Assembly: GCF_016862775.1 (NCBI RefSeq)
Contig: NZ_BONP01000009.1
Span: 62,001 to 126,000 of the forward strand
Reading direction: 5' to 3'
Length of the DNA: 64,000 nucleotides
From: Cellulomonas phragmiteti
GTDB lineage: Bacteria > Actinomycetota > Actinomycetes > Actinomycetales > Cellulomonadaceae
The position numbers were made by a program, and so were the translations under genes. Below are positions 6,902 through 56,036 of this stretch, piece after piece (position 1 is the first letter of the stretch; each line of letters starts with the position of its first letter). The notes below the pieces were generated by a model. It was not told the origin of the DNA. It did no database searches and worked only from the letters and a program-made list of their open reading frames with translations.

Positions 6902-8089
6902 GTGTCCCGTCGTCTGCGGCCCACACCCCGGGGGACCGCGCTCGCGGTGCTCGGTGTGCTCGCGCTCGGCCTCGGCCTGCTCGCGCGCTACCCGGGCCTC
7001 GTCGCCGTCGGCGTCGCCGCGGTCGGGCTCGTCGTCGTGGCCGTCGTGTCCCTGCTGGTGCCCGTCCCGCTGGACGTGACCCACCGGCTGGTGCCCGGGC
7101 GCACGCCGCGGCTGGGCGCCGCGGCCGCGCACGTGGACCTGCGCAACGCCTCGCCCTGGCTGCCGCTGCTCGTCGCGGGCACGGACCACGTCGCCGGCCG
7201 GGACGTCGCGCTGCCGCCCACCCGCCTCGCGCCGCGGGGCAGCGGGGTGGTCGAGGTGCCCGTCCCCACGGACCGCCGCGGCCTGCTGCCCGTCGGCCCG
7301 TTCGTCCTCGAGCGACGTGCGCTGGCGGACCTCGTGCGCTCGCGCGAGCGCCGTGGCGGGTCGTCGACGCTGCAGGTCACGCCGCGGGTCCTGGCCGCCG
7401 CGGGCCCCCCGACCGGCCGCCGCCGGGGCCACGTCGGGGCGCAGGAGCGCGTGGAGCACGGTGGCACGGACCTCGTGGGCCTGCGCGAGTACGTGCCCGG
7501 CGACGACCTGCGGCGCGTGCACTGGGCGAGCACCGCGCGGCACGGCACCCCCATGGTGCGCGAGGACGCCGACCCCGCCGAGCCGCACCTGACCGTCCTG
7601 CTCGACGACCGGGCGGACGCCTACGTCGCCGGGGCGGCGGGTGACGGGTTCGAGGAGGCCGTCGACGTGGCGGCGTCGCTCGTGCACGCGTGCGCCGCGG
7701 TCGGTGTCCCCGTGCGCTGCGTGAGCGTGTCGGGGTCGCTCGACGTGGACGTCCCGGCCGGTGTCCCGGGCAGCGGGGAGCCGCTGCGAGCCGCCGCGTA
7801 CGCCGTCGACCGGCTCACCCTCGTCGCCGCGGGCGACCGTCCCCTGACGGACGCGGTCGCGGTCCCGCCGGGCGGCGGTCCGGTGGTCGACGTGCTCGCC
7901 GTCGTCACGGGGGCGGGCGCGCCCGTGCCCCCGCTGCTCCTGGCCGCCCGCGGGGCGGACACCGCCGCGCTGCTCGTGGTCGACCCCGCGCCGCGCCGGG
8001 CGCTCGGCGCGGCGGCGACCGCCACGGTGGTGCGCGGCCCGCGGGCCGAGGACCTGCTGCGGGGCTGGGACCTGGCGGTGGCGCCGTGA
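6902..8089 (+). CDS. DUF58 domain protein
   Basis: A 395-residue protein with two N-terminal membrane helices (about residues 12-50) and the DUF58 signature around residues 190-210 (LREYVPGDD followed by RRVHW). DUF58 proteins carry a VWA-like fold and are usually encoded with MoxR and a transglutaminase-like membrane protein, exactly the order seen here. The GTG start at 6902 follows the moxR stop by nine bases, with a GAGG that could serve for ribosome binding. Its stop codon overlaps the GTG of the next gene (GTGA), again indicating coupling. Confidence 0.92.
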   Translation: MSRRLRPTPRGTALAVLGVLALGLGLLARYPGLVAVGVAAVGLVVVAVVSLLVPVPLDVTHRLVPGRTPRLGAAAAHVDLRNASPWLPLLVAGTDHVAGRDVALPPTRLAPRGSGVVEVPVPTDRRGLLPVGPFVLERRALADLVRSRERRGGSSTLQVTPRVLAAAGPPTGRRRGHVGAQERVEHGGTDLVGLREYVPGDDLRRVHWASTARHGTPMVREDADPAEPHLTVLLDDRADAYVAGAAGDGFEEAVDVAASLVHACAAVGVPVRCVSVSGSLDVDVPAGVPGSGEPLRAAAYAVDRLTLVAAGDRPLTDAVAVPPGGGPVVDVLAVVTGAGAPVPPLLLAARGADTAALLVVDPAPRRALGAAATATVVRGPRAEDLLRGWDLAVAP

Positions 8090-47512: not shown

Positions 47513-49798
47513 GTGAGCACCGTCGCCCCCACCCCGCCTGTCGCCGCACCCGACGCGGCCGCACCCTTCGGCCTCGCCGCCGTGCGACTCACCGACGGGC
47601 CGTTCGCCGCGGCGCAGCGCACCGCCCGGGAGTACCTGCTCGGCCTGCGGCCCGACAGGCTCCTCGCGCCGTTCCGGCGCGAGGCCGGGCTGCCCGCGGT
47701 CGCCGAGCCGTACGGCAGCTGGGAGTCCATCGGCCTGGACGGGCACGTCGGCGGGCACGCGCTGTCGGCGGTGGCGCTGCAGTGGGCCGCGACGGGGGAC
47801 GAGCGTGCCGCCGACCTGGCGCGGGCGCTCGTCGACGGGCTCGTGACCTGCCAGGACGCGCTGGGGACCGGGTACGTCGGGGGAGTGCCGGGCGGCGTCG
47901 CGCTCTGGGAGTCCGTCGCGGCCGGTGGTGCGCAGGCCGGCACGTTCGACCTCGGTGGCGCGTGGGTGCCCTGGTACAACGTCCACAAGACGTACGCCGG
48001 GCTGATCGACGCCGCGAGGTACGCACCGGCGGACGTCGCCGCCCGGGCGCGGGACGCGGCCGTGCGGCTGGGGGACTGGGGTGTCGCGCTGTCGGACCGT
48101 CTCGACGACGACGCGTTCGCACGCATGCTCCGGACCGAGTTCGGCGGGATGTGCGAGGCGTACGGCGACCTCGCGGACCTCACCGGCGACCCGCGGTACG
48201 CGGCCCTCGCCCGGCGCTTCGCGGACGAGACCCTCCTCGCGCCCCTGCGCGAGGGGCGCGACGCCCTCGACGGGCTGCACGCCAACACGCAGGTCGCCAA
48301 GGTCGTCGGCTGGCCCGGGATCGGTGAGGTGGGCGCCGCCGCGGCGTTCGTGCGGACCGTCCTGGACCACCGGACGCTGGCGTTCGGGGGCAACTCCGTC
48401 TCCGAGCACTTCACGCCCGACGCCGCGGCGCACGTCACGCACCGCGAGGGCCCCGAGTCGTGCAACACCGCCAACATGCTCGAGGTCGAACGGCGCCTGT
48501 ACGCGGCCACCGGCGACGTCACCCTGCTCGACGCGGCCGAGCGGCAGCTGGTCGACCACGTGCTGTCCGCGCAGCACCCCGCGGGCGGGTTCGTGTACTT
48601 CACCCCCGCGCGGCCGGGGCACTACCGCGTGTACTCGACGCGGGACGCGTGCATGTGGTGCTGCGTGGGCACGGCGCTGGAGACGTACGCGCGCCTCGGG
48701 GAGCTCGCGTACGCGCACGCGGGCGACGGCCTGCTGGTGAACCTGCCGGTGCCCTCGACCCTGCACTGGGCCGAGCGCGGCGTGCGCGTCCGGCTCGCCT
48801 CGACGTACCCGACGCCCGGCCCCGTGACCGACGTCGCGCTGACCGTGGACGTCGACGCCCCGACCGACCTCGCCGTGCACGTGCGCCGCCCTGCGTGGGC
48901 ACTCGACGAGGTCGTCCTCACCGTCGACGGGGTCGTGGTGCCACCCGTCGCCGAGCGTGCCGGCTACACCACCGTGCGCCGCACGTGGCGCGGCGGCGAG
49001 ACGCTCGCGTGGCGCCTCGTCGCCGGCCCGGCCGTGGAGCGGCTGCCCGGCGACGACGGCTGGGTCGCGCTGCGCTGGGGCCCGGCGGTCCTCGCGGCCC
49101 GGGGGGACACCGACGACCTCGTCGGGCTGCGGGCCGACGACTCGCGCATGGGCCACGTCGCGCACGGCCCGCTGCGCCCCCTGGCCGACGCCCCGCTGCT
49201 CGTCGGGTCGGACGACGCCCTCGCGGCGGCGCTGCGGCCGCGCGACGACGGCACGTTCGTGCTCGACCGCGCACCCGACGCCCCGGTCGTCCTCGAGCCC
49301 TTCCACGGGCTGCACGACGCCCGGTACACGCTGTACTTCCCGGTCGTCCCGGACGCGGCGCACGTCGGTGCGCGCCGCGCCGCCCTCGCCGCCCTCGACG
49401 ACGAGCAGCTCGGCCTCGCGGCCCGCACCGTCGACGCCGTCGCGTGCGGTGAGCAGCAGCCGGAGACCGACCACCACTACGCAGGGGCCGACACGTGGAC
49501 GGGCGCCGTCGACGGCCGGCACTGGCGCGCGACCCGCGACAGGTTCTCCTACCGGCTGACCGACCCCGACGGCCGTGGCGCGGTGCTGCGGATCACGTAC
49601 CTGGCCCGGCCGGGGCGCGCCCGGGTGCTGTGGGGCGGCGAGGAGGTGGGGCGCCTGGACGTCGGCAGCGCCGACGGTGGGCTGCGGTCCGTGGACCTGG
49701 CCGTGACGTCCGGGTCGCACGAGGTCGTCGTGCTCGCCGACGGCGACCCCACACCGCCCGTCGTCGCCGTCCGGCTCCTCACCGGCCCGCCCGCCTGA
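47513..49798 (+). CDS. GH127-family glycosidase (beta-L-arabinofuranosidase type)
   Basis: A 761-residue DUF1680 protein. Family members are zinc- and cysteine-dependent retaining enzymes; the metal/catalytic residues match as Glu315 and Cys317 (GPESCNT) and Cys383-Cys384 (WCCVGT). The N-terminal (alpha/alpha)6 barrel spans about 20-430 and beta-sandwich domains follow. No signal peptide, so it would act inside the cell on imported oligosaccharides. The GTG at 47513 follows CAGGGT by six bases. Linkage to the LacI operator ties it to ThuA and the oxidoreductases. Substrate beyond L-arabinofuranosides cannot be excluded. Confidence 0.9.
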   Translation: MSTVAPTPPVAAPDAAAPFGLAAVRLTDGPFAAAQRTAREYLLGLRPDRLLAPFRREAGLPAVAEPYGSWESIGLDGHVGGHALSAVALQWAATGDERAADLARALVDGLVTCQDALGTGYVGGVPGGVALWESVAAGGAQAGTFDLGGAWVPWYNVHKTYAGLIDAARYAPADVAARARDAAVRLGDWGVALSDRLDDDAFARMLRTEFGGMCEAYGDLADLTGDPRYAALARRFADETLLAPLREGRDALDGLHANTQVAKVVGWPGIGEVGAAAAFVRTVLDHRTLAFGGNSVSEHFTPDAAAHVTHREGPESCNTANMLEVERRLYAATGDVTLLDAAERQLVDHVLSAQHPAGGFVYFTPARPGHYRVYSTRDACMWCCVGTALETYARLGELAYAHAGDGLLVNLPVPSTLHWAERGVRVRLASTYPTPGPVTDVALTVDVDAPTDLAVHVRRPAWALDEVVLTVDGVVVPPVAERAGYTTVRRTWRGGETLAWRLVAGPAVERLPGDDGWVALRWGPAVLAARGDTDDLVGLRADDSRMGHVAHGPLRPLADAPLLVGSDDALAAALRPRDDGTFVLDRAPDAPVVLEPFHGLHDARYTLYFPVVPDAAHVGARRAALAALDDEQLGLAARTVDAVACGEQQPETDHHYAGADTWTGAVDGRHWRATRDRFSYRLTDPDGRGAVLRITYLARPGRARVLWGGEEVGRLDVGSADGGLRSVDLAVTSGSHEVVVLADGDPTPPVVAVRLLTGPPA

Positions 49799-49852
49799 CG
49801 GCGCGCGTCGCAGGTGCGCGCTCAGCAGCGCCGCCCGCACCGGTCGAACGCC

Positions 49853-50764
49853 CTACCCGGTCGGTGGTCGCTCGGTGGCCCCGATGACCGCGAGGAGCCG
49901 GTGGCGGAGCGTGGTGCTGCGCGCGGCGAACTCGCGCTGGCGGCGGACGTACGCGGCCTTGCCGTCCGGCGTCTCGATCGCGATCGGGTCCAGGCCGTAC
50001 GACGTCACGTCGTAGGGGCTCGCGCGCATGTCGGTGGTGCGGATCTCGCGCGCGAGGGTGAAGCAGTCGAGCAGCAGGTCGCCGGGGACCAGCGGGCCCA
50101 GCTTGAGCGCCCACTTGTACACGTCCATGTTCGCGTGCAGGCACCCCGGTTGCTCCATCGCGGTCTGCGTCGCGCGCGTCGGCGTCACGGTGTTGCGGCC
50201 GACGGCCTCGGGGGTGAAGAAGCGGAACGCGTCGATGTGCGTGCAGCGGATGCGGTGCGCCTCGACGACGGCGTCCGTGCCGGCGCTGCCGAGCCGCAGG
50301 GGGAGCGGGTGCCGGTGCTCGTCGGGGCGCTCGCGGTAGACCATCGCCCACTCGTGCAGCCCGAAGCAGCTGGTCGCGGCGGGCCGCGAGGCCGTCGCGG
50401 CGAGCAGCCCGGCGATGAACCGCACCGCCTCGCCACGGGCGGCGAGGAACGCCTCGACGTCCAGGCCGACCGTGCCGTCGTCGGCCGTGGCGTACCACTT
50501 CCACCCGGCGTGCGGTGCCGGACCGTCGGCGCCGGCCGCCAGCGCTATGCCTGCTCCGGGGTGCCAGCGTCGCAGCTGCGCGGGCGACGCCGGGTAGTAC
50601 TCGAAGAGGAAGTCCTCGATCGCGTGCCGCTCGTGCCGCGACCGGCGCGCCCGGTGCCCGGCGGTCAGCCGGTCGGCGTGCTCCGCGTGCGCGGCGGCAC
50701 GCGCCGACCACGTGGCCGCGTCGAGCACGGTCACGGTCACGGTCGCGGCGGGCGGGGTAGGCAC
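49853..50764 (-). CDS. Conserved actinobacterial protein of unknown function
   Basis: A 303-residue soluble protein. It opens with VTVLDAATWSARAAAHAEH and has conserved-looking blocks such as HAIEDFLFEYYPASPAQLRRWHPG and FGLHEWAMVYR. Homologues are sometimes labelled 3-methyladenine DNA glycosylase, but I see no helix-hairpin-helix or catalytic motif supporting that. The GTG at 50764 is preceded by TACCCT with six bases between on its strand (50771-50776), which decides the start over an upstream GTG at 50803. Confidence 0.7.
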   Translation of the reverse strand: MPTPPAATVTVTVLDAATWSARAAAHAEHADRLTAGHRARRSRHERHAIEDFLFEYYPASPAQLRRWHPGAGIALAAGADGPAPHAGWKWYATADDGTVGLDVEAFLAARGEAVRFIAGLLAATASRPAATSCFGLHEWAMVYRERPDEHRHPLPLRLGSAGTDAVVEAHRIRCTHIDAFRFFTPEAVGRNTVTPTRATQTAMEQPGCLHANMDVYKWALKLGPLVPGDLLLDCFTLAREIRTTDMRASPYDVTSYGLDPIAIETPDGKAAYVRRQREFAARSTTLRHRLLAVIGATERPPTG

Positions 50765-50823
50765 CGTCCCAGGGTAGGTCGCGGCCGGTTGCCCGGTCGG
50801 CACCGGCGGGGCAGGGTGACGAC

Positions 50824-51468
50824 GTGCGCCAGCTGCTGCGGTCCCTGCCTGCCCTGTCCGGGACGGCTCCCGCGTTCGACCCCGAGGCCGCGCCCGACGA
50901 CCCGCTCGAGCTGTTCTCGGCCTGGTTCGCGACCGCCGTCGAGCACCGCGTGCCCGAGCCGCACGCCGCGACGCTGGCCACCGCCGACGCCGACGGGCGC
51001 CCCTCGGCGCGCGTCCTGGTCCTCAAGGACGTCGGACCGGACGGGTTCGCGTTCGCGACGGACGCCCGCAGCGCCAAGGCGTCCGACCTGGCGGCGAACC
51101 CGAGGGCGGCGCTGGGGTTCTGGTGGCAGCCGGTCCTGCGGCAGGTGCGGGTCGAGGGGACCGCGCGGCACCTCGGCGTCGAGGCGTCGGCGGACGACTA
51201 CCTCGCCCGCTCCCCGGCGTCCCGCGCCGCCGCGGCGGGCGTGCGGCCGGGGGAGCCGCTGACCTCGGTCGACGAGCTGCGTGCCGCGATGAGCGACGCA
51301 CGCGCCCGCATCGACGCGGACCCCGCGTTCGTGCTGCCGTCGTGGCAGGCGTGGCTCGTGGTGCCCGACGTCCTGGAGTTCTGGCAGGGCAGCCCCGACC
51401 GCGCGCACGTCCGGCTCGTCTACCGGCGTGACGCAGACCGCTGGTCCCACGGCCTGGTCTGGCCGTGA
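50824..51468 (+). CDS. Pyridoxamine 5'-phosphate oxidase-like protein
   Basis: A 214-residue FMN-dependent oxidase-type protein. It has the PdxH-like order: RVLVLKDVGPDGFAFATDA, a SAKASDLAANPRAALGFWW strand, and a C-terminal segment VLEFWQGSPDRAH. These match pyridoxine/pyridoxamine phosphate oxidase, which makes PLP. The extreme C-terminus (HGLVWP) departs from the usual R-L-x-P, so a related role is possible. The GTG lies six bases after CAGGGT. Confidence 0.82.
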   Translation: MRQLLRSLPALSGTAPAFDPEAAPDDPLELFSAWFATAVEHRVPEPHAATLATADADGRPSARVLVLKDVGPDGFAFATDARSAKASDLAANPRAALGFWWQPVLRQVRVEGTARHLGVEASADDYLARSPASRAAAAGVRPGEPLTSVDELRAAMSDARARIDADPAFVLPSWQAWLVVPDVLEFWQGSPDRAHVRLVYRRDADRWSHGLVWP

Positions 51469-51502
51469 CGAGGACCACGGTGAGGGCGGGTTCCGCCGGT
51501 GC

Positions 51503-51508
51503 TAGGGT
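51503..51508 (+). promoter_or_regulatory. -10 hexamer of the cystine importer leader
   Basis: TAGGGT ends seven bases before the ATG at 51516, placing the transcription start at or near that codon. Confidence 0.55.
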
Positions 51509-51515
51509 CGCCCGC

Positions 51516-51575
51516 ATGACCACGGCCCCGCGCACCGCGCCCGCTGCCGCGTGTCGTCGTTGTCGCTGTCGCTGA
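51516..51575 (+). CDS. Cys/Arg-rich leader peptide
   Basis: A 19-residue ORF, MTTAPRTAPAAACRRCRCR then TGA. Three of the last seven codons are Cys, and four are Arg. It is apparently leaderless and lies 150 bases upstream of an amino acid ABC importer operon. Leaderless short ORFs rich in Cys codons act as cysteine-responsive attenuators in mycobacteria, so the same role is proposed. No T-run terminator follows; two small GC hairpins (51594-51609 and 51614-51632) lie downstream, so the mechanism could be translational or Rho-dependent. Confidence 0.75.
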   Translation: MTTAPRTAPAAACRRCRCR

Positions 51576-51593
51576 GGCCCGCCTCGCCAGCCC

Positions 51594-51632
51594 GGACCGT
51601 CCGCGGTCCCACCGTGACCGCTCGGCGGTCGC
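51594..51632 (+). promoter_or_regulatory. Paired hairpins between the Cys leader and the importer
   Basis: GGACCG/CGGTCC (51594-51609) with a TCCG loop, then GACCG/CGGTC (51616-51630) with a CTCGG loop. The two share the GACCG/CGGTC arms, so they could swap partners. That would suit a leader-controlled switch, but no function is shown. Confidence 0.4.
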
Positions 51633-51725
51633 CACCCTGACGCCCTCGCGTCGCCCCTCCCGCACCACCCTCCGGTCCCGTCCGGGCGTCGACACGTCGA
51701 CACCACCGCTCCGAAAGGCACCCCC

Positions 51726-52511
51726 ATGCTCCGCACGTCCCGTCGTCTGCTCGCCGTCCCCGTGCTGCTCGCCGTGGGTGTGCTGGCCGCGTGCTCGTCC
51801 GCCGACGAGACGCCCGTGGGCGAGAGCACGTCCGCTGTCGACGTGCTGCGCGTCGGCACCGAGGGCACGTACTCGCCCTTCAGCTTCCACGACGCCGCGG
51901 GCGACCTGACGGGCTACGACGTGGCGGTCATCACCGCGGTCGCCGAGGAGCTCGGGCTCGAGGTCGAGTTCTCCGAGACCTCGTGGGACTCGATCTTCGC
52001 GGGCCTGGAGGCGGAGCGGTACGACGTCGTCGCAAACCAGGTGACGATCAACGACGAGCGGCTCGCGCGGTACGACTTCACCGAGCCGTACACCGTGTCC
52101 ACCGGTGTCGCCGTGGTCGCGGCGGACGACGACACGGTCACCTCCCTCGCGGACGTCGAGGGCCTCACGGCGGCGCAGTCCGCGACGTCGAACTGGTCGC
52201 AGGTCGCCACCGAGGCCGGCGCGCGGGTCGAGGCCGTCGAGGGCTTCACGCAGGCCGTCGCACTGCTCACGCAGGGGCGCATCGACGTGACGTTCAACGA
52301 CGACCTCGCGGTGCTCGACTACCTCCAGCAGTCGGGGGACACGTCGGTCAAGATCGCGTTCGAGACCGGGGACACCGTCGAGCAGGCCTTCGCCCTGCGC
52401 AAGGGCTCGGAGCTCACCGCACGGATCGACGAGGCGCTCGCGGCGCTGCGCGCCGACGGCCGCCTCGCCGCCCTCTCGGAGAAGTGGTTCGGCGAGGACG
52501 TCTCGCAGTGA
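51726..52511 (+). CDS. Cystine/amino acid ABC transporter substrate-binding lipoprotein
   Basis: A 261-residue family 3 solute-binding protein. The signal peptide ends in a lipobox (GVLAAC, Cys23). The core has LRVGTEGTYSPFSFHD, the cystine-binding-type segment NQVTINDERLARYDF with TEPYTVSTG, and YLQQSG near the hinge. These resemble TcyA/TcyJ/FliY cystine binders more than glutamine binders. The ATG at 51726 has GAAAGG upstream. The Cys-rich leader upstream supports cystine as substrate; direct proof is lacking. Confidence 0.88.
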   Translation: MLRTSRRLLAVPVLLAVGVLAACSSADETPVGESTSAVDVLRVGTEGTYSPFSFHDAAGDLTGYDVAVITAVAEELGLEVEFSETSWDSIFAGLEAERYDVVANQVTINDERLARYDFTEPYTVSTGVAVVAADDDTVTSLADVEGLTAAQSATSNWSQVATEAGARVEAVEGFTQAVALLTQGRIDVTFNDDLAVLDYLQQSGDTSVKIAFETGDTVEQAFALRKGSELTARIDEALAALRADGRLAALSEKWFGEDVSQ

Positions 52512-52533
52512 GCGCCGGGGACCGGGCCGCCGC

Positions 52534-53202
52534 GTGACGGCCGACACCTGGGACCTCGTCGCGTCGTCGATCGGTCCGCTGCTGTCCGGTGCCGTGCGCG
52601 GCACGATCCCGCTGACGCTGATCTCGTTCGTCATCGGGCTCGTGCTCGCGCTCGTCGTCGCGCTGGCACGCCTGTCGCGGCGGCGCGTCGTGTCCGGGCT
52701 GGCGCGGGCGTACATCTCGCTGATCCGCGGCACGCCGCTGCTCGTGCAGCTGTTCATCATCTTCTACGCGCTGCCGTCGCTCGGGCTCGTCATCGACCCG
52801 TTCCCGTCGGCCGTCGTGGCCTTCTCGCTGAACGTCGGCGGGTACGCGGCCGAGACGATCCGCGCGGCGATCCTGTCGGTGCCCAAGGGGCAGTGGGAGG
52901 CCGCGGCGACCATCGGGCTCGACCACACGCTCACGCTGCGGCGCGTCGTGCTGCCGCAGGCCCTGCGCGTCGCGGTCCCGCCGCTGTCCAACACCTTCAT
53001 CTCGCTGGTCAAGGACACGTCCCTGGCCTCGACGATCATGGTGACCGAGCTGCTGCGCAAGGCGCAGGAGATCGCGGCGCCCACCTACGAGTTCATGACG
53101 CTGTACGTGCTGGCCGCGGTGATCTACTGGCTCATCTGCCTCGTGCTCTCGGCCGGCCAGTCGCGGCTCGAGCGCCGGCTCGACCGGTTCGTGGCGCACT
53201 GA
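52534..53202 (+). CDS. Amino acid (cystine-type) ABC transporter permease
   Basis: A 222-residue polar amino acid permease with five membrane helices and the EAA loop that docks the ATPase (EAAATIGLDHTLTLRRVVLPQA). The FIISLVKDTSLAS segment (here FISLVKDTSLAST) is characteristic of the HisM/GlnP family. The GTG at 52534 is 22 bases after the binding-protein gene; both are one operon. Confidence 0.92.
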   Translation: MTADTWDLVASSIGPLLSGAVRGTIPLTLISFVIGLVLALVVALARLSRRRVVSGLARAYISLIRGTPLLVQLFIIFYALPSLGLVIDPFPSAVVAFSLNVGGYAAETIRAAILSVPKGQWEAAATIGLDHTLTLRRVVLPQALRVAVPPLSNTFISLVKDTSLASTIMVTELLRKAQEIAAPTYEFMTLYVLAAVIYWLICLVLSAGQSRLERRLDRFVAH

Positions 53203-53215
53203 CGTGGGAGACGCG

Positions 53216-54013
53216 ATGACGAGTGACGCGACGACCGGCGACGCGACGTCGCCCGACGCCGGACGCCCGCTGGTCGAGGTCCACGGCCTGACCAAGTCCT
53301 TCGGGGACCTGCACGTGCTGCGCGGCATCGACCTGAGCGTCGACCGCGGCAGCGTGACCGTGCTCATCGGCCCGTCCGGGTCCGGCAAGACGACGCTCCT
53401 GCGCTGCCTCAACTCCCTCGAGGTGCCCGAGGCCGGCACCGTGCGCGTCGACGACGTCGAGCTGGACCTGGCCCGTCGTCCCACGCGTGGCGAGCTCAAG
53501 CGGCTGCGCGCGACGTCCGGGATGGTCTTCCAGTCCCACCAGCTGTTCCCGCACCGCACGGCCCTGCAGAACGTCACCGAGGGCCCCGTCTTCGCACAGC
53601 GCCGACCGGTCGCGCAGGCGACGGCCGAGGCGACGGCGCTGCTCGCCAAGGTCGGGCTCGCGGACAAGGCCGACGCCTACCCGCACGAGCTCTCGGGCGG
53701 TCAGCAGCAGCGCGTCGGCATCGCCCGCGCGCTCGCGCTGCGGCCGCGGCTGCTGCTGTTCGATGAGCCCACCTCGGCGCTGGACCCCGAGACGGTGGGC
53801 GAGGTGCTCGCCGTCATGCGGGACCTCGCCGCCGAGGGGTGGACGATGGTGGTCGTCACGCACGAGATCCGGTTCGCCCGGCAGGTGGCCGACCACGTCG
53901 TGTTCATGGACGACGGCGTCGTGGTCGAGGAGGGCCGGCCGGACGACGTGCTGGGCGACCCGCGCCAGGAGCGCACACGGCGCTTCCTGCAGCGCATCCT
54001 CGACCCGCTCTGA
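53216..54013 (+). CDS. Amino acid (cystine-type) ABC transporter ATP-binding protein
   Basis: A 265-residue ABC ATPase. Walker A GPSGSGKTT, Q-loop VFQSHQLF, signature LSGGQQQR, Walker B LLLFDEPTSALD and H-loop VVTHE are complete. The best start is ATG 53216, with GGGAG six bases upstream; a GTG four codons earlier is weaker. The first about 17 residues are a polar Asp/Thr-rich extension. Confidence 0.94.
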   Translation: MTSDATTGDATSPDAGRPLVEVHGLTKSFGDLHVLRGIDLSVDRGSVTVLIGPSGSGKTTLLRCLNSLEVPEAGTVRVDDVELDLARRPTRGELKRLRATSGMVFQSHQLFPHRTALQNVTEGPVFAQRRPVAQATAEATALLAKVGLADKADAYPHELSGGQQQRVGIARALALRPRLLLFDEPTSALDPETVGEVLAVMRDLAAEGWTMVVVTHEIRFARQVADHVVFMDDGVVVEEGRPDDVLGDPRQERTRRFLQRILDPL

Positions 54014-54020
54014 CGGGGGC

Positions 54021-55109
54021 TCAGCCGGGGCCGGGCGCCTGCCCGTTGCCGGGCGTCCCGCCGGCCGGTCGCCGTGCGGGCAGCTCGTCCGGTGCGACGT
54101 CCGCGGCGCGCACCGACACCACGTGCAGGACCAGCTCCAGCGGCCCGCGTCCGAGCGTCGCGTGCCACAGCCAGCACAGCGCGACCGTGACGAGCAGGAA
54201 CCCGACCAGGCCACCGGCCGTCGGCTGCCACACGACCTGGTCCCCGAGCAGAGCGATGGCCAGCAGCTGGCCGGAGTAGGCCGTCAGCGCGAGCGCACCC
54301 GTCGCGGAGACCGGCGCCAGCGCCCGCGGCCACCGCACGCCGAGCGCCAGGCAGCCCGCCAGCACGAGCAGGCACGTGCCGGTGTTCCCGGCGACCTCGA
54401 AGAAGGTCGACGCGTGCGGCTCGGCCGTCGTCAGCTCGGTCACGCGGCCCAGCACCAGCCGCGCGGCCCACGCCCCGCCGTGCCCGACGACCACGAGCAC
54501 GGCGCCCCAGCCGGCCAGCGCCGCGTGCGTGCGGGCCGCCCGCAGGTCGCTGCGGCCCACCGCGAGGCCGACCAGGACGTACGCGATCCACACGACGGCC
54601 GGGTAGTAGGACCCGACGAGGACGGAGAGCAGGTCGAGCGGCCGCTCGTCGGCGACCTGGAGGTGCGCGACGGCCAGCTGACGCACGACGGGCCCGACGA
54701 GCGCGACGCCGGCGGCCACGGCGACCAGCACCCACCGTGGCCAGCGCAGCGCGACGACGGCGGCGGCGAAGAGCGCGGCGTACACCACGAGGATCACCAC
54801 GACGGGCGTCCCGAGCAGGACGAGCGCGGTGCCCACCGCGACCAGCAGCGCGGCCCGGACGAGGATCCGCAGCCGGGCCTGGACCAGGCGGGTGCCGTCG
54901 ACCGGGTCGGCGCCGCCCGACAGCAGCGCCAGCCCGACACCGGCCAGCAGCACGAACAGGGCGGAGGGCCGCCCGTCGGCGAGCTGTGACCAGCCTCCCG
55001 GCGGGAAGGCGCGCTCCGCGTCCCGCGGGCCCACGTGCGCGACGACCATGCCGAGCACGGCGATCCCACGGGCGGTGTCCACCCCGACGATGCGTCGCAC
55101 CCTCGGCAT
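54021..55109 (-). CDS. Multi-pass membrane protein, DUF418/heparan acetyltransferase-like
   Basis: A 362-residue protein with about ten hydrophobic segments and the family's N-terminal signature RRIVGVDTARGIAVLGMVVAHV. The related heparan-alpha-glucosaminide N-acetyltransferase domain proteins transfer acyl groups across the membrane; DUF418 relatives end with a conserved block not clearly seen here. Start at ATG 55109. It converges on the importer operon with only seven bases between. Substrate unknown. Confidence 0.75.
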   Translation of the reverse strand: MPRVRRIVGVDTARGIAVLGMVVAHVGPRDAERAFPPGGWSQLADGRPSALFVLLAGVGLALLSGGADPVDGTRLVQARLRILVRAALLVAVGTALVLLGTPVVVILVVYAALFAAAVVALRWPRWVLVAVAAGVALVGPVVRQLAVAHLQVADERPLDLLSVLVGSYYPAVVWIAYVLVGLAVGRSDLRAARTHAALAGWGAVLVVVGHGGAWAARLVLGRVTELTTAEPHASTFFEVAGNTGTCLLVLAGCLALGVRWPRALAPVSATGALALTAYSGQLLAIALLGDQVVWQPTAGGLVGFLLVTVALCWLWHATLGRGPLELVLHVVSVRAADVAPDELPARRPAGGTPGNGQAPGPG

Positions 55110-55206
55110 GCTAGGTCCTCGGCCTGGGACGACGTCCCAGGACACACCCTTCTCAGGATGTGACCTCATGCGTCCCGGCTGGTGGTCAGACGGCGAGCCC
55201 CGCGCC

Positions 55207-55212
55207 TACAGT
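55207..55212 (+). promoter_or_regulatory. -10 hexamer before the methyltransferase gene
   Basis: TACAGT ends five bases before the GTG at 55218. No ribosome site. Confidence 0.5.
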
Positions 55213-55217
55213 GCCGT

Positions 55218-56036
55218 GTGACCACGCGGACCCACGACGTCTACACGCACGGCCACCACGAGAGCGTGCTGCGCTCGCACCGGTGGCGCACGGCGGAGAA
55301 CTCCGCCGGGTACCTGCTGCCCGCCCTCGCGCCGGGCCAGCGGCTGCTCGACGTCGGGTGCGGGCCGGGCACCGTCACCGTCGACCTCGCGTCGCGGGTC
55401 GCCCCGGGCGAGGTCATGGGCGTCGACCGCTCGGCGGCGGTCCTGGCGGCCGCCTCCGAGCACGCGGCCGAGAAGGGCGCCACCAACGTGCGCTTCACCG
55501 TCGGCGACGCGTACGCGCTGGAGTTCGACGACGACACGTTCGACGTGGTCCACGCGCACCAGGTGCTGCAGCACCTCACGGACCCCGTCGCCGCGCTGCG
55601 CGAGATGCGCCGCGTCACCCGTCCCGGCGGTGTCGTCGCCGTCCGGGACGCCGACTACGCCGGCATGACGTGGTACCCCGCCCACCCCGGCCTCGACGAG
55701 TGGCAGGAGCTCTACCACGAGGTCACGCAGGCCAACGGCGCGGAGGCCGACGCGGGCCGGCGCCTGCTGTCCTGGGTGCGGCAGGCCGGCTTCGACCCCG
55801 CGGGCGTCGCCCCGGGCGCGGGCGTCTGGTGCTACGCGACCCCCGAGGACCGCACCTGGTGGTCGAGCCTGTGGGCCGACCGCTGCGTGACCTCGGACTT
55901 CGCCGTCCAGGCGATGGACCACAAGCTCGCCGACGAGGTCGCCCTCGAGCTGCTCGCCGACGCGTGGCGCGAGTGGGGCACGTCGCCCGACGGCTGGTTC
56001 CTCGTGCCGCACGGCGAGGTGCTGGCCCGCGCCTGA
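55218..56036 (+). CDS. Class I SAM-dependent methyltransferase
   Basis: A 272-residue methyltransferase with the SAM-binding loop LLDVGCGPGTVTVDLA (about 43-58), acidic motif GVDRS and a VVHAHQVLQHL post-II block, as in the UbiE/COQ5-like group. The C-terminal half has many Trp residues (WYPAHPG, WWSSLW) that may shape the substrate pocket. The leaderless-type start at GTG 55218 is favoured over an ATG 12 codons upstream. Substrate unknown. Confidence 0.88.
   Translation: MTTRTHDVYTHGHHESVLRSHRWRTAENSAGYLLPALAPGQRLLDVGCGPGTVTVDLASRVAPGEVMGVDRSAAVLAAASEHAAEKGATNVRFTVGDAYALEFDDDTFDVVHAHQVLQHLTDPVAALREMRRVTRPGGVVAVRDADYAGMTWYPAHPGLDEWQELYHEVTQANGAEADAGRRLLSWVRQAGFDPAGVAPGAGVWCYATPEDRTWWSSLWADRCVTSDFAVQAMDHKLADEVALELLADAWREWGTSPDGWFLVPHGEVLARA

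What the first reader, a model, noticed from the sequence alone, without database searches (positions are those of the whole stretch)
51503..51725. Cys/Arg-rich leaderless ORF upstream of a cystine-type ABC importer
A 19-residue ORF ending CRRCRCR starts seven bases after TAGGGT and precedes the importer operon by 150 bases. Hairpins with shared GACCG/CGGTC arms lie between. Poly-Cys leaderless ORFs are described cysteine attenuators in mycobacteria; the mixed Cys/Arg ending and the absence of a T-run terminator make this one different.
Basis: partly seen in the sequence, partly recalled or inferred. Interest (0 to 1): 0.7.

Follow-up and report, generated by a model that had tools for sequence, protein, structure and literature searches.

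The report
Cysteine-sensing leader of cystine importer
A tiny cysteine-rich reading frame just ahead of a cystine-type uptake operon is kept in related bacteria and is very probably a cysteine gauge that turns the operon up when cysteine runs low, a known kind of switch found here at a new gene.

Summary
In detail: TAGGGT lies 7 bases before ATG 51516, and the ORF MTTAPRTAPAAACRRCRCR* ends 150 bases before a family-3 importer operon whose proteins match cystine-transporter models best, though below curated cut-offs. The genus is Cellulomonas. A Cys/Arg-tailed short ORF precedes the importer in 21 of 24 Cellulomonas loci (28 of 4000 random windows). The -10 box, Cys tail and Shine-Dalgarno are conserved; the 137-nt spacer is not. 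Cys codons in these leaders are TGT in 51 of 64, against 4.7% in this genome's genes. Similar Cys leaders precede a sulfite-reductase and a sulfonate-type operon of the same genome. Best reading: a cysteine-responsive leader-peptide attenuator of the actinobacterial kind predicted in 2005 and validated in mycobacteria in 2020, at a new gene. Shine-Dalgarno sequestration was not found in silico; the spacer is extremely C-rich and G-poor, so Rho-dependent termination is my preferred, unproven output step (about even odds). There are no expression data.

The parts
51503..51508 (+). -10 hexamer TAGGGT, preceded by TGC (extended -10 type)
   Evidence: in 10 aligned close orthologues the -10 plus its spacer has mean pairwise identity 0.87
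51516..51575 (+). leader ORF MTTAPRTAPAAACRRCRCR*, start probably at or next to the transcription start (leaderless)
   Evidence: Cys/Arg-tailed ORF in 21 of 24 orthologue loci
51552..51572 (+). Cys/Arg tail, codons TGT CGT CGT TGT CGC TGT CGC
   Evidence: codons; identity 0.91 (tail plus stop) in 10 orthologues against 0.51 for the spacer
51576..51712 (+). spacer without a conserved ORF, C-rich and G-poor (C 53%, G 26%), candidate Rho-utilisation region
51594..51609 (+). hairpin 1, GGACCG/CGGTCC
   Evidence: different stems in relatives; weak z-scores
51614..51632 (+). hairpin 2, GTGACCGC/GCGGTCGC
   Evidence: weak z-scores
51713..51718 (+). Shine-Dalgarno GAAAGG of the importer operon, invariant in 10 of 10
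51726..52511 (+). family-3 substrate-binding protein, cystine type (261 aa)
   Evidence: PF00497; best NCBIfam PRK11260 cystine, 182.9 bits against cut-off 312; best PDB sequence 2yln/3zsf, E 1.9e-60
52534..53202 (+). amino-acid ABC permease, best NCBIfam cystine permease PRK15100, 262 bits against cut-off 300
53204..54013 (+). ABC ATPase, best NCBIfam TcyN, 330.3 bits against cut-off 406

Best explanation
It is a leaderless, cysteine-responsive leader peptide that attenuates the cystine importer operon. RNA polymerase starts at or beside ATG 51516 and a ribosome begins at once. With ample Cys-tRNA it runs quickly through the tail and leaves at the TGA, exposing a naked C-rich, G-poor spacer; transcription then tends to stop before the importer genes, most likely through Rho. 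With little Cys-tRNA the ribosome slows or stalls on the rare TGT Cys codons, the RNA behind the polymerase is remodelled, and the importer is made. Shown by sequence: the ORF, its conservation, the TGT bias, the skewed spacer, the lack of an intrinsic terminator, and further Cys leaders before sulfur operons. Inferred: transcription start, translation, stalling, the direction of response, Rho as effector (about 0.5), and how a stalled ribosome keeps Rho off. The confidence given is for a Cys-responsive attenuator, not for Rho.
For: Conservation: 21 of 24 Cellulomonas loci have a Cys/Arg-tailed ORF (28 of 4000 random windows; 2 of 73 non-Cellulomonas relatives). Among 30 loci tested by tblastn (L002-L031; L011 and L030 lack upstream sequence) the pdxH-like neighbour is found only beside the close loci, yet the leader is there without it. 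Identity: -10 0.87, ORF body 0.76, Cys tail 0.91, spacer 0.51, SD 1.00 in 10 orthologues. Cys codons 51 TGT: 13 TGC in 19 leaders, genome genes 48:965, all-frame TGT share 19.5%. Other Cys leaders: sulfite reductase operon 26 of 30 loci fetched; sulfonate-type operon 3 of 3 close loci, own included, and 0 of 27 distant flavin reductases. C-over-G skew of the spacer in the 0.03-0.8% tail of genome windows in 10 of 10; rho gene present; no terminator.
Against: No transcript start, ribosome profile or expression datum exists here. TANNNT 6-7 nt before the start was found for 12 of the 21 leaders only. L017, L019 and L024 of the 24 and the further named Cellulomonas locus L032 have no such ORF; non-Cellulomonas relatives mostly lack it (2 of 73). 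The stalled ribosome would not itself cover the spacer, so the link from stalling to Rho is not explained by anatomy. The skew test set the best 100-nt window of each spacer against single genome windows, which favours the claim. Models NF042933/NF042934 do not match: the 36-residue extended frame and nine Cellulomonas leaders gave no such hit; the 19-residue ORF is too short to scan. The codon counts come from related sequences, so nominal P values overstate certainty.
Confidence: 0.86

Rival explanations
1. Translation attenuation as described for M. smegmatis: the leader mRNA folds so that the importer Shine-Dalgarno is hidden, and a ribosome stalled on the Cys codons frees it.
For: Precedent for Cys leaders, cited as translation attenuation; SD strictly conserved in 10 of 10.
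Against: SD unpaired probability stays at 0.37-0.64 and shifts by at most about 0.13 between free, stop-paused and stalled states in 10 orthologues; leader or spacer pairing with the SD region is no better than shuffled, z -1.87 to 1.25. Folding models of a GC-rich 250-nt RNA are rough.
Confidence: 0.28
2. Classical attenuation with an intrinsic terminator and anti-terminator built from the two hairpins.
For: Two adjacent hairpins with cross-pairing arms in this genome.
Against: No T-run site; arms differ among relatives; stems only slightly better than shuffles.
Confidence: 0.06
3. The peptide itself acts, for instance as a CxxCxC metal binder or redox peptide.
For: CRRCRC resembles a metal-binding motif (from recall).
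Against: Cys number and spacing vary between orthologues while Cys-richness near the stop stays; the rare codon TGT is favoured, which suits a codon sensor; what the sulfur-operon leaders share is Cys codons.
Confidence: 0.04
4. Sensor of arginine, or of cysteine and arginine together.
For: Arg is abundant in the tail and CGT is enriched there, 28 of 94 Arg codons against 8.2% in genes.
Against: The operon matches cystine transporters best; sulfite-reductase leaders share the Cys but not the Arg wealth.
Confidence: 0.06
5. Chance ORF without function.
For: Cys-rich short ORFs do arise in this GC-rich DNA: 15 of 1898 with three or more Cys in the last nine under a relaxed box, and 11 places in 464 kb with no promoter filter.
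Against: Conservation in 21 of 24 loci against 0.7% of random windows.
Confidence: 0.01

Closest known systems
Polycysteine-encoding leaderless short ORFs of mycobacteria (Canestrari et al. 2020, PMC8764745; paper not held, known from citing papers, and from recall)
   Same: Leaderless-type short ORF with Cys codons, before cysteine/sulfur operons, several per genome.
   Different: Here single Cys alternate with Arg instead of contiguous Cys codons, the target is a cystine-type importer, the genus is Cellulomonas, and SD sequestration was not found in silico.
Predicted Cys leaders of Mycobacterium, Propionibacterium acnes and Bifidobacterium longum (Seliverstov et al. 2005, PMC1262725, passages)
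   Same: Runs of Cys codons near the stop, no conserved terminator, pyrimidine motifs suggested as Rho sites.
   Different: Those precede cys operons and cbs; here an importer, with a C-over-G skew in 10 of 10 orthologues (the 2005 motifs were said not to be conserved).
metL leader before metNIQ in Streptomyces lividans, MSTTSDRTPATEATTTPGARCMCRRMCAF (PMC8079986, passages)
   Same: Leaderless leader with a mixed Cys/Arg tail before an ABC importer of a sulfur amino acid; no typical Rho-independent terminator.
   Different: Contains Met as well and was read by its authors as rich in methionine and threonine; another importer.
NCBIfam NF042933 leader_Ms5788A and NF042934 cis_reg_atten
   Same: Short actinobacterial leader with Cys near the end; 20 TGT of 42 Cys codons in the 11 leaders counted out of 16 matches.
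   Different: The Cellulomonas leaders scanned match neither model and lack the RRxVDLCR core seen.

Membership tests
Actinobacterial leaderless Cys-rich leader-peptide attenuators (the kind) | Short ORF with Cys codons clustered near its stop, upstream of a sulfur/cysteine operon | tested here: met
   21 of 24 loci; substrate assignment is by best model only
Actinobacterial leaderless Cys-rich leader-peptide attenuators (the kind) | Leaderless initiation | tested here: inconclusive
   -10 hexamer 7 nt before ATG, conserved; TANNNT in 12 of 21 leaders; no transcript start data
Actinobacterial leaderless Cys-rich leader-peptide attenuators (the kind) | Conservation of the ORF and its Cys codons | tested here: met
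   within Cellulomonas only
Actinobacterial leaderless Cys-rich leader-peptide attenuators (the kind) | Several such leaders per genome before sulfur operons | tested here: met
   importer, sulfite reductase operon, sulfonate-type operon
Actinobacterial leaderless Cys-rich leader-peptide attenuators (the kind) | Expression responds to cysteine through the leader | not testable with these tools
   needs reporter work
Polycysteine subtype of Canestrari et al. | Contiguous Cys codons | tested here: not met
   CRRCRCR in the window; CC or CCC only in some relatives
Polycysteine subtype of Canestrari et al. | Sequestration of the downstream ribosome-binding site relieved by stalling | tested here: inconclusive
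   not seen in silico; not tested in cells
NCBIfam NF042933 leader_Ms5788A | Match to the model | tested here: not met
   no match in the extended frame or in nine Cellulomonas leaders; no match in G000 at E 0.001
Classical terminator-type attenuator | GC hairpin followed by a T-run | tested here: not met
Rho-dependent attenuator | C-rich, G-poor region between leader and gene, rho gene present | tested here: met
Rho-dependent attenuator | Termination in the spacer that needs Rho | not testable with these tools
   needs bicyclomycin or in vitro transcription
Known Rfam riboswitch or T-box | Match to a family | tested here: not met
   only a sub-threshold miRNA hit inside the ATPase gene in 48000-56000

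The most novel reading that the evidence does not exclude
Cellulomonas runs a cysteine regulon made of separate leader ORFs tuned with the rare Cys codon TGT to amplify Cys-tRNA sensing, and at the importer the output is Rho-dependent termination in a C-over-G spacer, not RBS sequestration as in M. smegmatis: the same sensor coupled to a different effector.
Probability: 0.35. Interest if true: 0.55.

Novelty: new member of a known kind. Interest (0 to 1): 0.4.

Why it matters
It extends leader-based cysteine control from mycobacteria to Cellulomonas and to cystine-type uptake, and shows that tails with single Cys residues separated by Arg can be as conserved as Cys tracts. The TGT bias (80% against 4.7%) could serve as a simple test for real Cys leaders in GC-rich genomes, where annotation tends to miss ORFs of 19 codons. 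It also poses a clear question: Rho termination or a hidden ribosome-binding site as the output of Cys leaders.

Tried and rejected
Intrinsic terminator attenuation: no T-run site. Riboswitch or T-box: nothing in Rfam but a sub-threshold miRNA hit inside the ATPase gene. SD sequestration by folding with ribosome masks and by duplex energies: no signal. RNAalifold consensus: 19 pairs, 3 with a both-sided change, covariation term -0.8, weak. The loose own-genome pattern TGYYGNYGNYGNTGA gave 132 hits and was uninformative. The 36-codon GTG-start extension of the ORF (51465) was rejected: no upstream in-frame start sits at a shared position in 10 close orthologues, and L003 has an in-frame stop 12 nt upstream of its ATG; 9 of 10 do have some upstream in-frame GTG or ATG, so the extension is unlikely, not excluded. 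A weak match of one relative's leader to a TOMM-toxin model (E 0.004, under its cut-off) was dismissed as Cys-rich noise. One search missed leaders because loci on the minus strand are not turned; repeated correctly. Non-Cellulomonas importer relatives, which include Bacillota, show no consistent leader (2 of 73). The 27 distant flavin-reductase loci are a weak control, as several lie inside long open frames.

Literature limits: Canestrari 2020 (PMC8764745) and PMC10122055 are not held. Three searches combining Cellulomonas, cystine or Cys codons with leader peptide listed no report of this leader: one search found 0 papers, searches found 53 and 51, of which I saw the first 12 each; only open-licence papers are searched.

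Full report
Observation. The sequence is as described: TAGGGT 51503-51508, seven bases, ATG 51516, an ORF of 19 codons ending CRRCRCR with TGA ending at 51575, then 150 bases to the ATG of a substrate-binding protein at 51726. The operon is binding protein (51726-52511), permease (52534-53202) and ATPase (53204-54013). All three match cystine transporter models best among NCBIfam (182.9, 262 and 330.3 bits) but stay below the curated cut-offs of 312, 300 and 406. The best solved relative of the binding protein by sequence is 2yln/3zsf, E 1.9e-60, well ahead of the next at 1.8e-40; that this entry is a Neisseria L-cystine receptor is recalled, the table names only an amino-acid binding protein. 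Upstream, a PdxH-like gene ends at 51468.

Organism. The six named contigs closest to the binding protein are Cellulomonas. The genus search over 81 genomes found 24 with the binding protein at E 1e-40 or better (25 loci).

Conservation. 24 of the 25 genus loci have upstream sequence (L011 starts at a contig end); 21 of those 24 carry, within 500 nt, an ORF of 15-40 residues with at least two Cys and three Arg in the last nine residues. The same test is met by 28 of 4000 random 500-nt windows of this genome, by 1 of 94 regions upstream of SD-preceded ORFs, and by 2 of 73 non-Cellulomonas relatives of the importer, Bacillota among them. The genus loci without it are L017, L019 and L024; a further Cellulomonas locus from the named collection, L032, also has none, while L027, L028, L029 and L031, which are re-finds of species already counted, have it. 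Examples: MTTAPSTALAAACRRCRCR, MTTTPRATCAATCRRHSCRCCR, MTTTSRDALVVACRGCRCCR, MTTTPGELLTAACRPCRRCR, and more distant ...APAACCCRPRR and MTSAPVHHATTVACRRCCRR. TANNNT 6-7 nt before the start was found for 12 of the 21. In ten close orthologues the mean pairwise identity is 0.87 for the -10 and its spacer, 0.76 for the ORF body, 0.91 for the Cys tail with the stop, 0.51 for the region after the stop, and 1.00 for the Shine-Dalgarno GAAAGG. The PdxH-like neighbour is found by tblastn only beside the close loci (L002-L010, L012 and their re-finds, of L002-L031 tested), so the leader stays with the importer where that neighbour is missing.

Other leaders in the same genome. I scanned 864 kb (40 stretches plus the window). 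With the strict box, 15 leaderless-like short ORFs were found; 2 of 15 have two or more Cys in the last nine residues: this one and MTPSTPLARTAPSPRDAALPARCCRGVLRSCR at L114:7861. The latter precedes a flavin reductase, an NMT1-type binding protein and, further on, a luciferase-like monooxygenase, a sulfonate-scavenging type of operon by gene content (inference). Its leader is present in 3 of 3 close loci, own included, and in 0 of 27 loci of distant flavin reductases, a weak control because several of those lie inside long open frames. A third, GTG-started leader, MSLPGNRDMCRCCRAAAVPCACCPRNR (L119, minus strand, 18802), precedes a sulfite reductase gene (PF01077) with a CysD gene further on. 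A Cys-rich ORF (three or more Cys in the last twelve residues, within 420 nt) was found in 26 of the 30 genus loci fetched, own included, which were the best 30 of 42 matching genomes among 60 searched; L185, L186, L206 and L207 lack it. Against over-reading: without any promoter filter, 464 kb hold 11 places with three or more Cys in the last nine residues, and only this one and the sulfite-reductase leader were seen to precede sulfur genes; I looked at the surroundings of seven of the other nine, and none looked like a sulfur operon by eye. What the three sulfur-operon leaders share is Cys codons near the stop, not Arg.

Rare codon. In this genome TGT makes up 48 of 1013 Cys codons (4.7%) in 305 long ORFs chosen by codon-position GC content; in all frames TGT is 19.5% of TGT plus TGC. 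In 19 importer leaders (of the 21, two loci with duplicate leaders left out) TGT is 51 of 64; in 26 sulfite-reductase leaders 73 of 177; in 11 of 16 matches to the known Ms5788A leader model from other actinobacteria 20 of 42, where flanking genes gave 3 TGT to 23 TGC. The leaders are related, so nominal P values (4e-47 for the first) should not be taken literally, but the excess over the all-frame share is large. Slow decoding of a rare codon would sharpen a Cys-tRNA sensor (inference). A base-level constraint on the RNA is not excluded, because TGT in the importer tails is mostly followed by C.

Output step. There is no T-run terminator-like site. Folding the leader with no ribosome, with one at the stop, or with one on a Cys codon leaves the Shine-Dalgarno about equally accessible in the ten orthologues, and pairing of leader or spacer with the Shine-Dalgarno region is no better than shuffled. 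The spacer is unusual in base content: C 48-57%, G 25-31%, and its best 100-nt window lies in the top 0.03-0.8% of genome windows for C minus G in 10 of 10 orthologues (a best-of-many window was compared with single windows, which favours the claim). The spacers after the other leaders lean the same way (0.16-0.30 for three sulfonate-type loci, mean 0.15, range 0.06-0.23, for 26 sulfite-reductase loci). A rho gene is present. C-over-G stretches are the usual mark of Rho loading regions (established knowledge), and Rho was proposed, as a weak prediction, for actinobacterial Cys leaders in 2005 (PMC1262725, passages). I therefore prefer Rho-dependent attenuation, at about even odds. The weak point is that a stalled ribosome does not itself cover the spacer. 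The E. coli toiL case, where Rho termination follows from repressed translation, shows that translational and Rho control can be combined (PMC12121999, passages).

Known or new. [quoted passage not shown] acnes and of cbs in B. longum in 2005, and leaderless polycysteine ORFs were shown to be Cys-responsive in M. smegmatis in 2020 (cited in PMC9031893, PMC9094748 and PMC13236596: passages and one Discussion part read; the paper itself is not held). A leaderless leader ending RCMCRRMCAF was reported before metNIQ in S. lividans (PMC8079986, passages), so a mixed Cys/Arg tail before an importer of a sulfur amino acid is not unheard of. NCBIfam already holds actinobacterial leader models. They were not matched by the extended frame of this ORF or by nine Cellulomonas leaders, seven of them importer leaders; the 19-residue ORF itself is below the scan's minimum length. 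A Pseudonocardia ORF before a homologous importer comes close to NF042934, 26.1 bits against 27. Three targeted searches listed no description of this leader (0, 12 of 53 and 12 of 51 papers seen as listings). I file it as a new member of a known kind, with the importer target, the alternating Cys/Arg tail, the TGT bias and the C-over-G spacer as its own traits.

Noticed in passing
L119 (G000:C7) 18802, minus strand; orthologues L178-L184, L187-L205: GTG- or ATG-started ORF with two Cys clusters upstream of the sulfite reductase gene, in 26 of 30 Cellulomonas loci; the last Cys codon is TGT in all 26.
   Followed up: partly
L114 (G000:C4) about 7820-7955; L209, L210: The Cys leader before a sulfonate-type operon has an unusually AT-rich promoter kept in three loci (GTTGATnA...CTACGGT), which may carry an activator site.
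   Followed up: no
L003, L004, L005, L008, L010, spacer after the leader: A block GGTGGCAC...CCGTGGTGCTCTC shared by these five lies in the otherwise variable spacer; no function assigned.
   Followed up: no
L036, about 293 nt upstream of the importer match: In Pseudonocardia a homologous importer is preceded by an ORF containing SRRHVDLCRTHAALCRC, close to NCBIfam leader models NF042934 and NF042933 but under their cut-offs.
   Followed up: partly
literature: PMC8079986, metL of S. lividans: The published metL leader (RCMCRRMCAF tail before metNIQ) was read as rich in methionine and threonine; its Cys content suggests it may sense cysteine as well.
   Followed up: no
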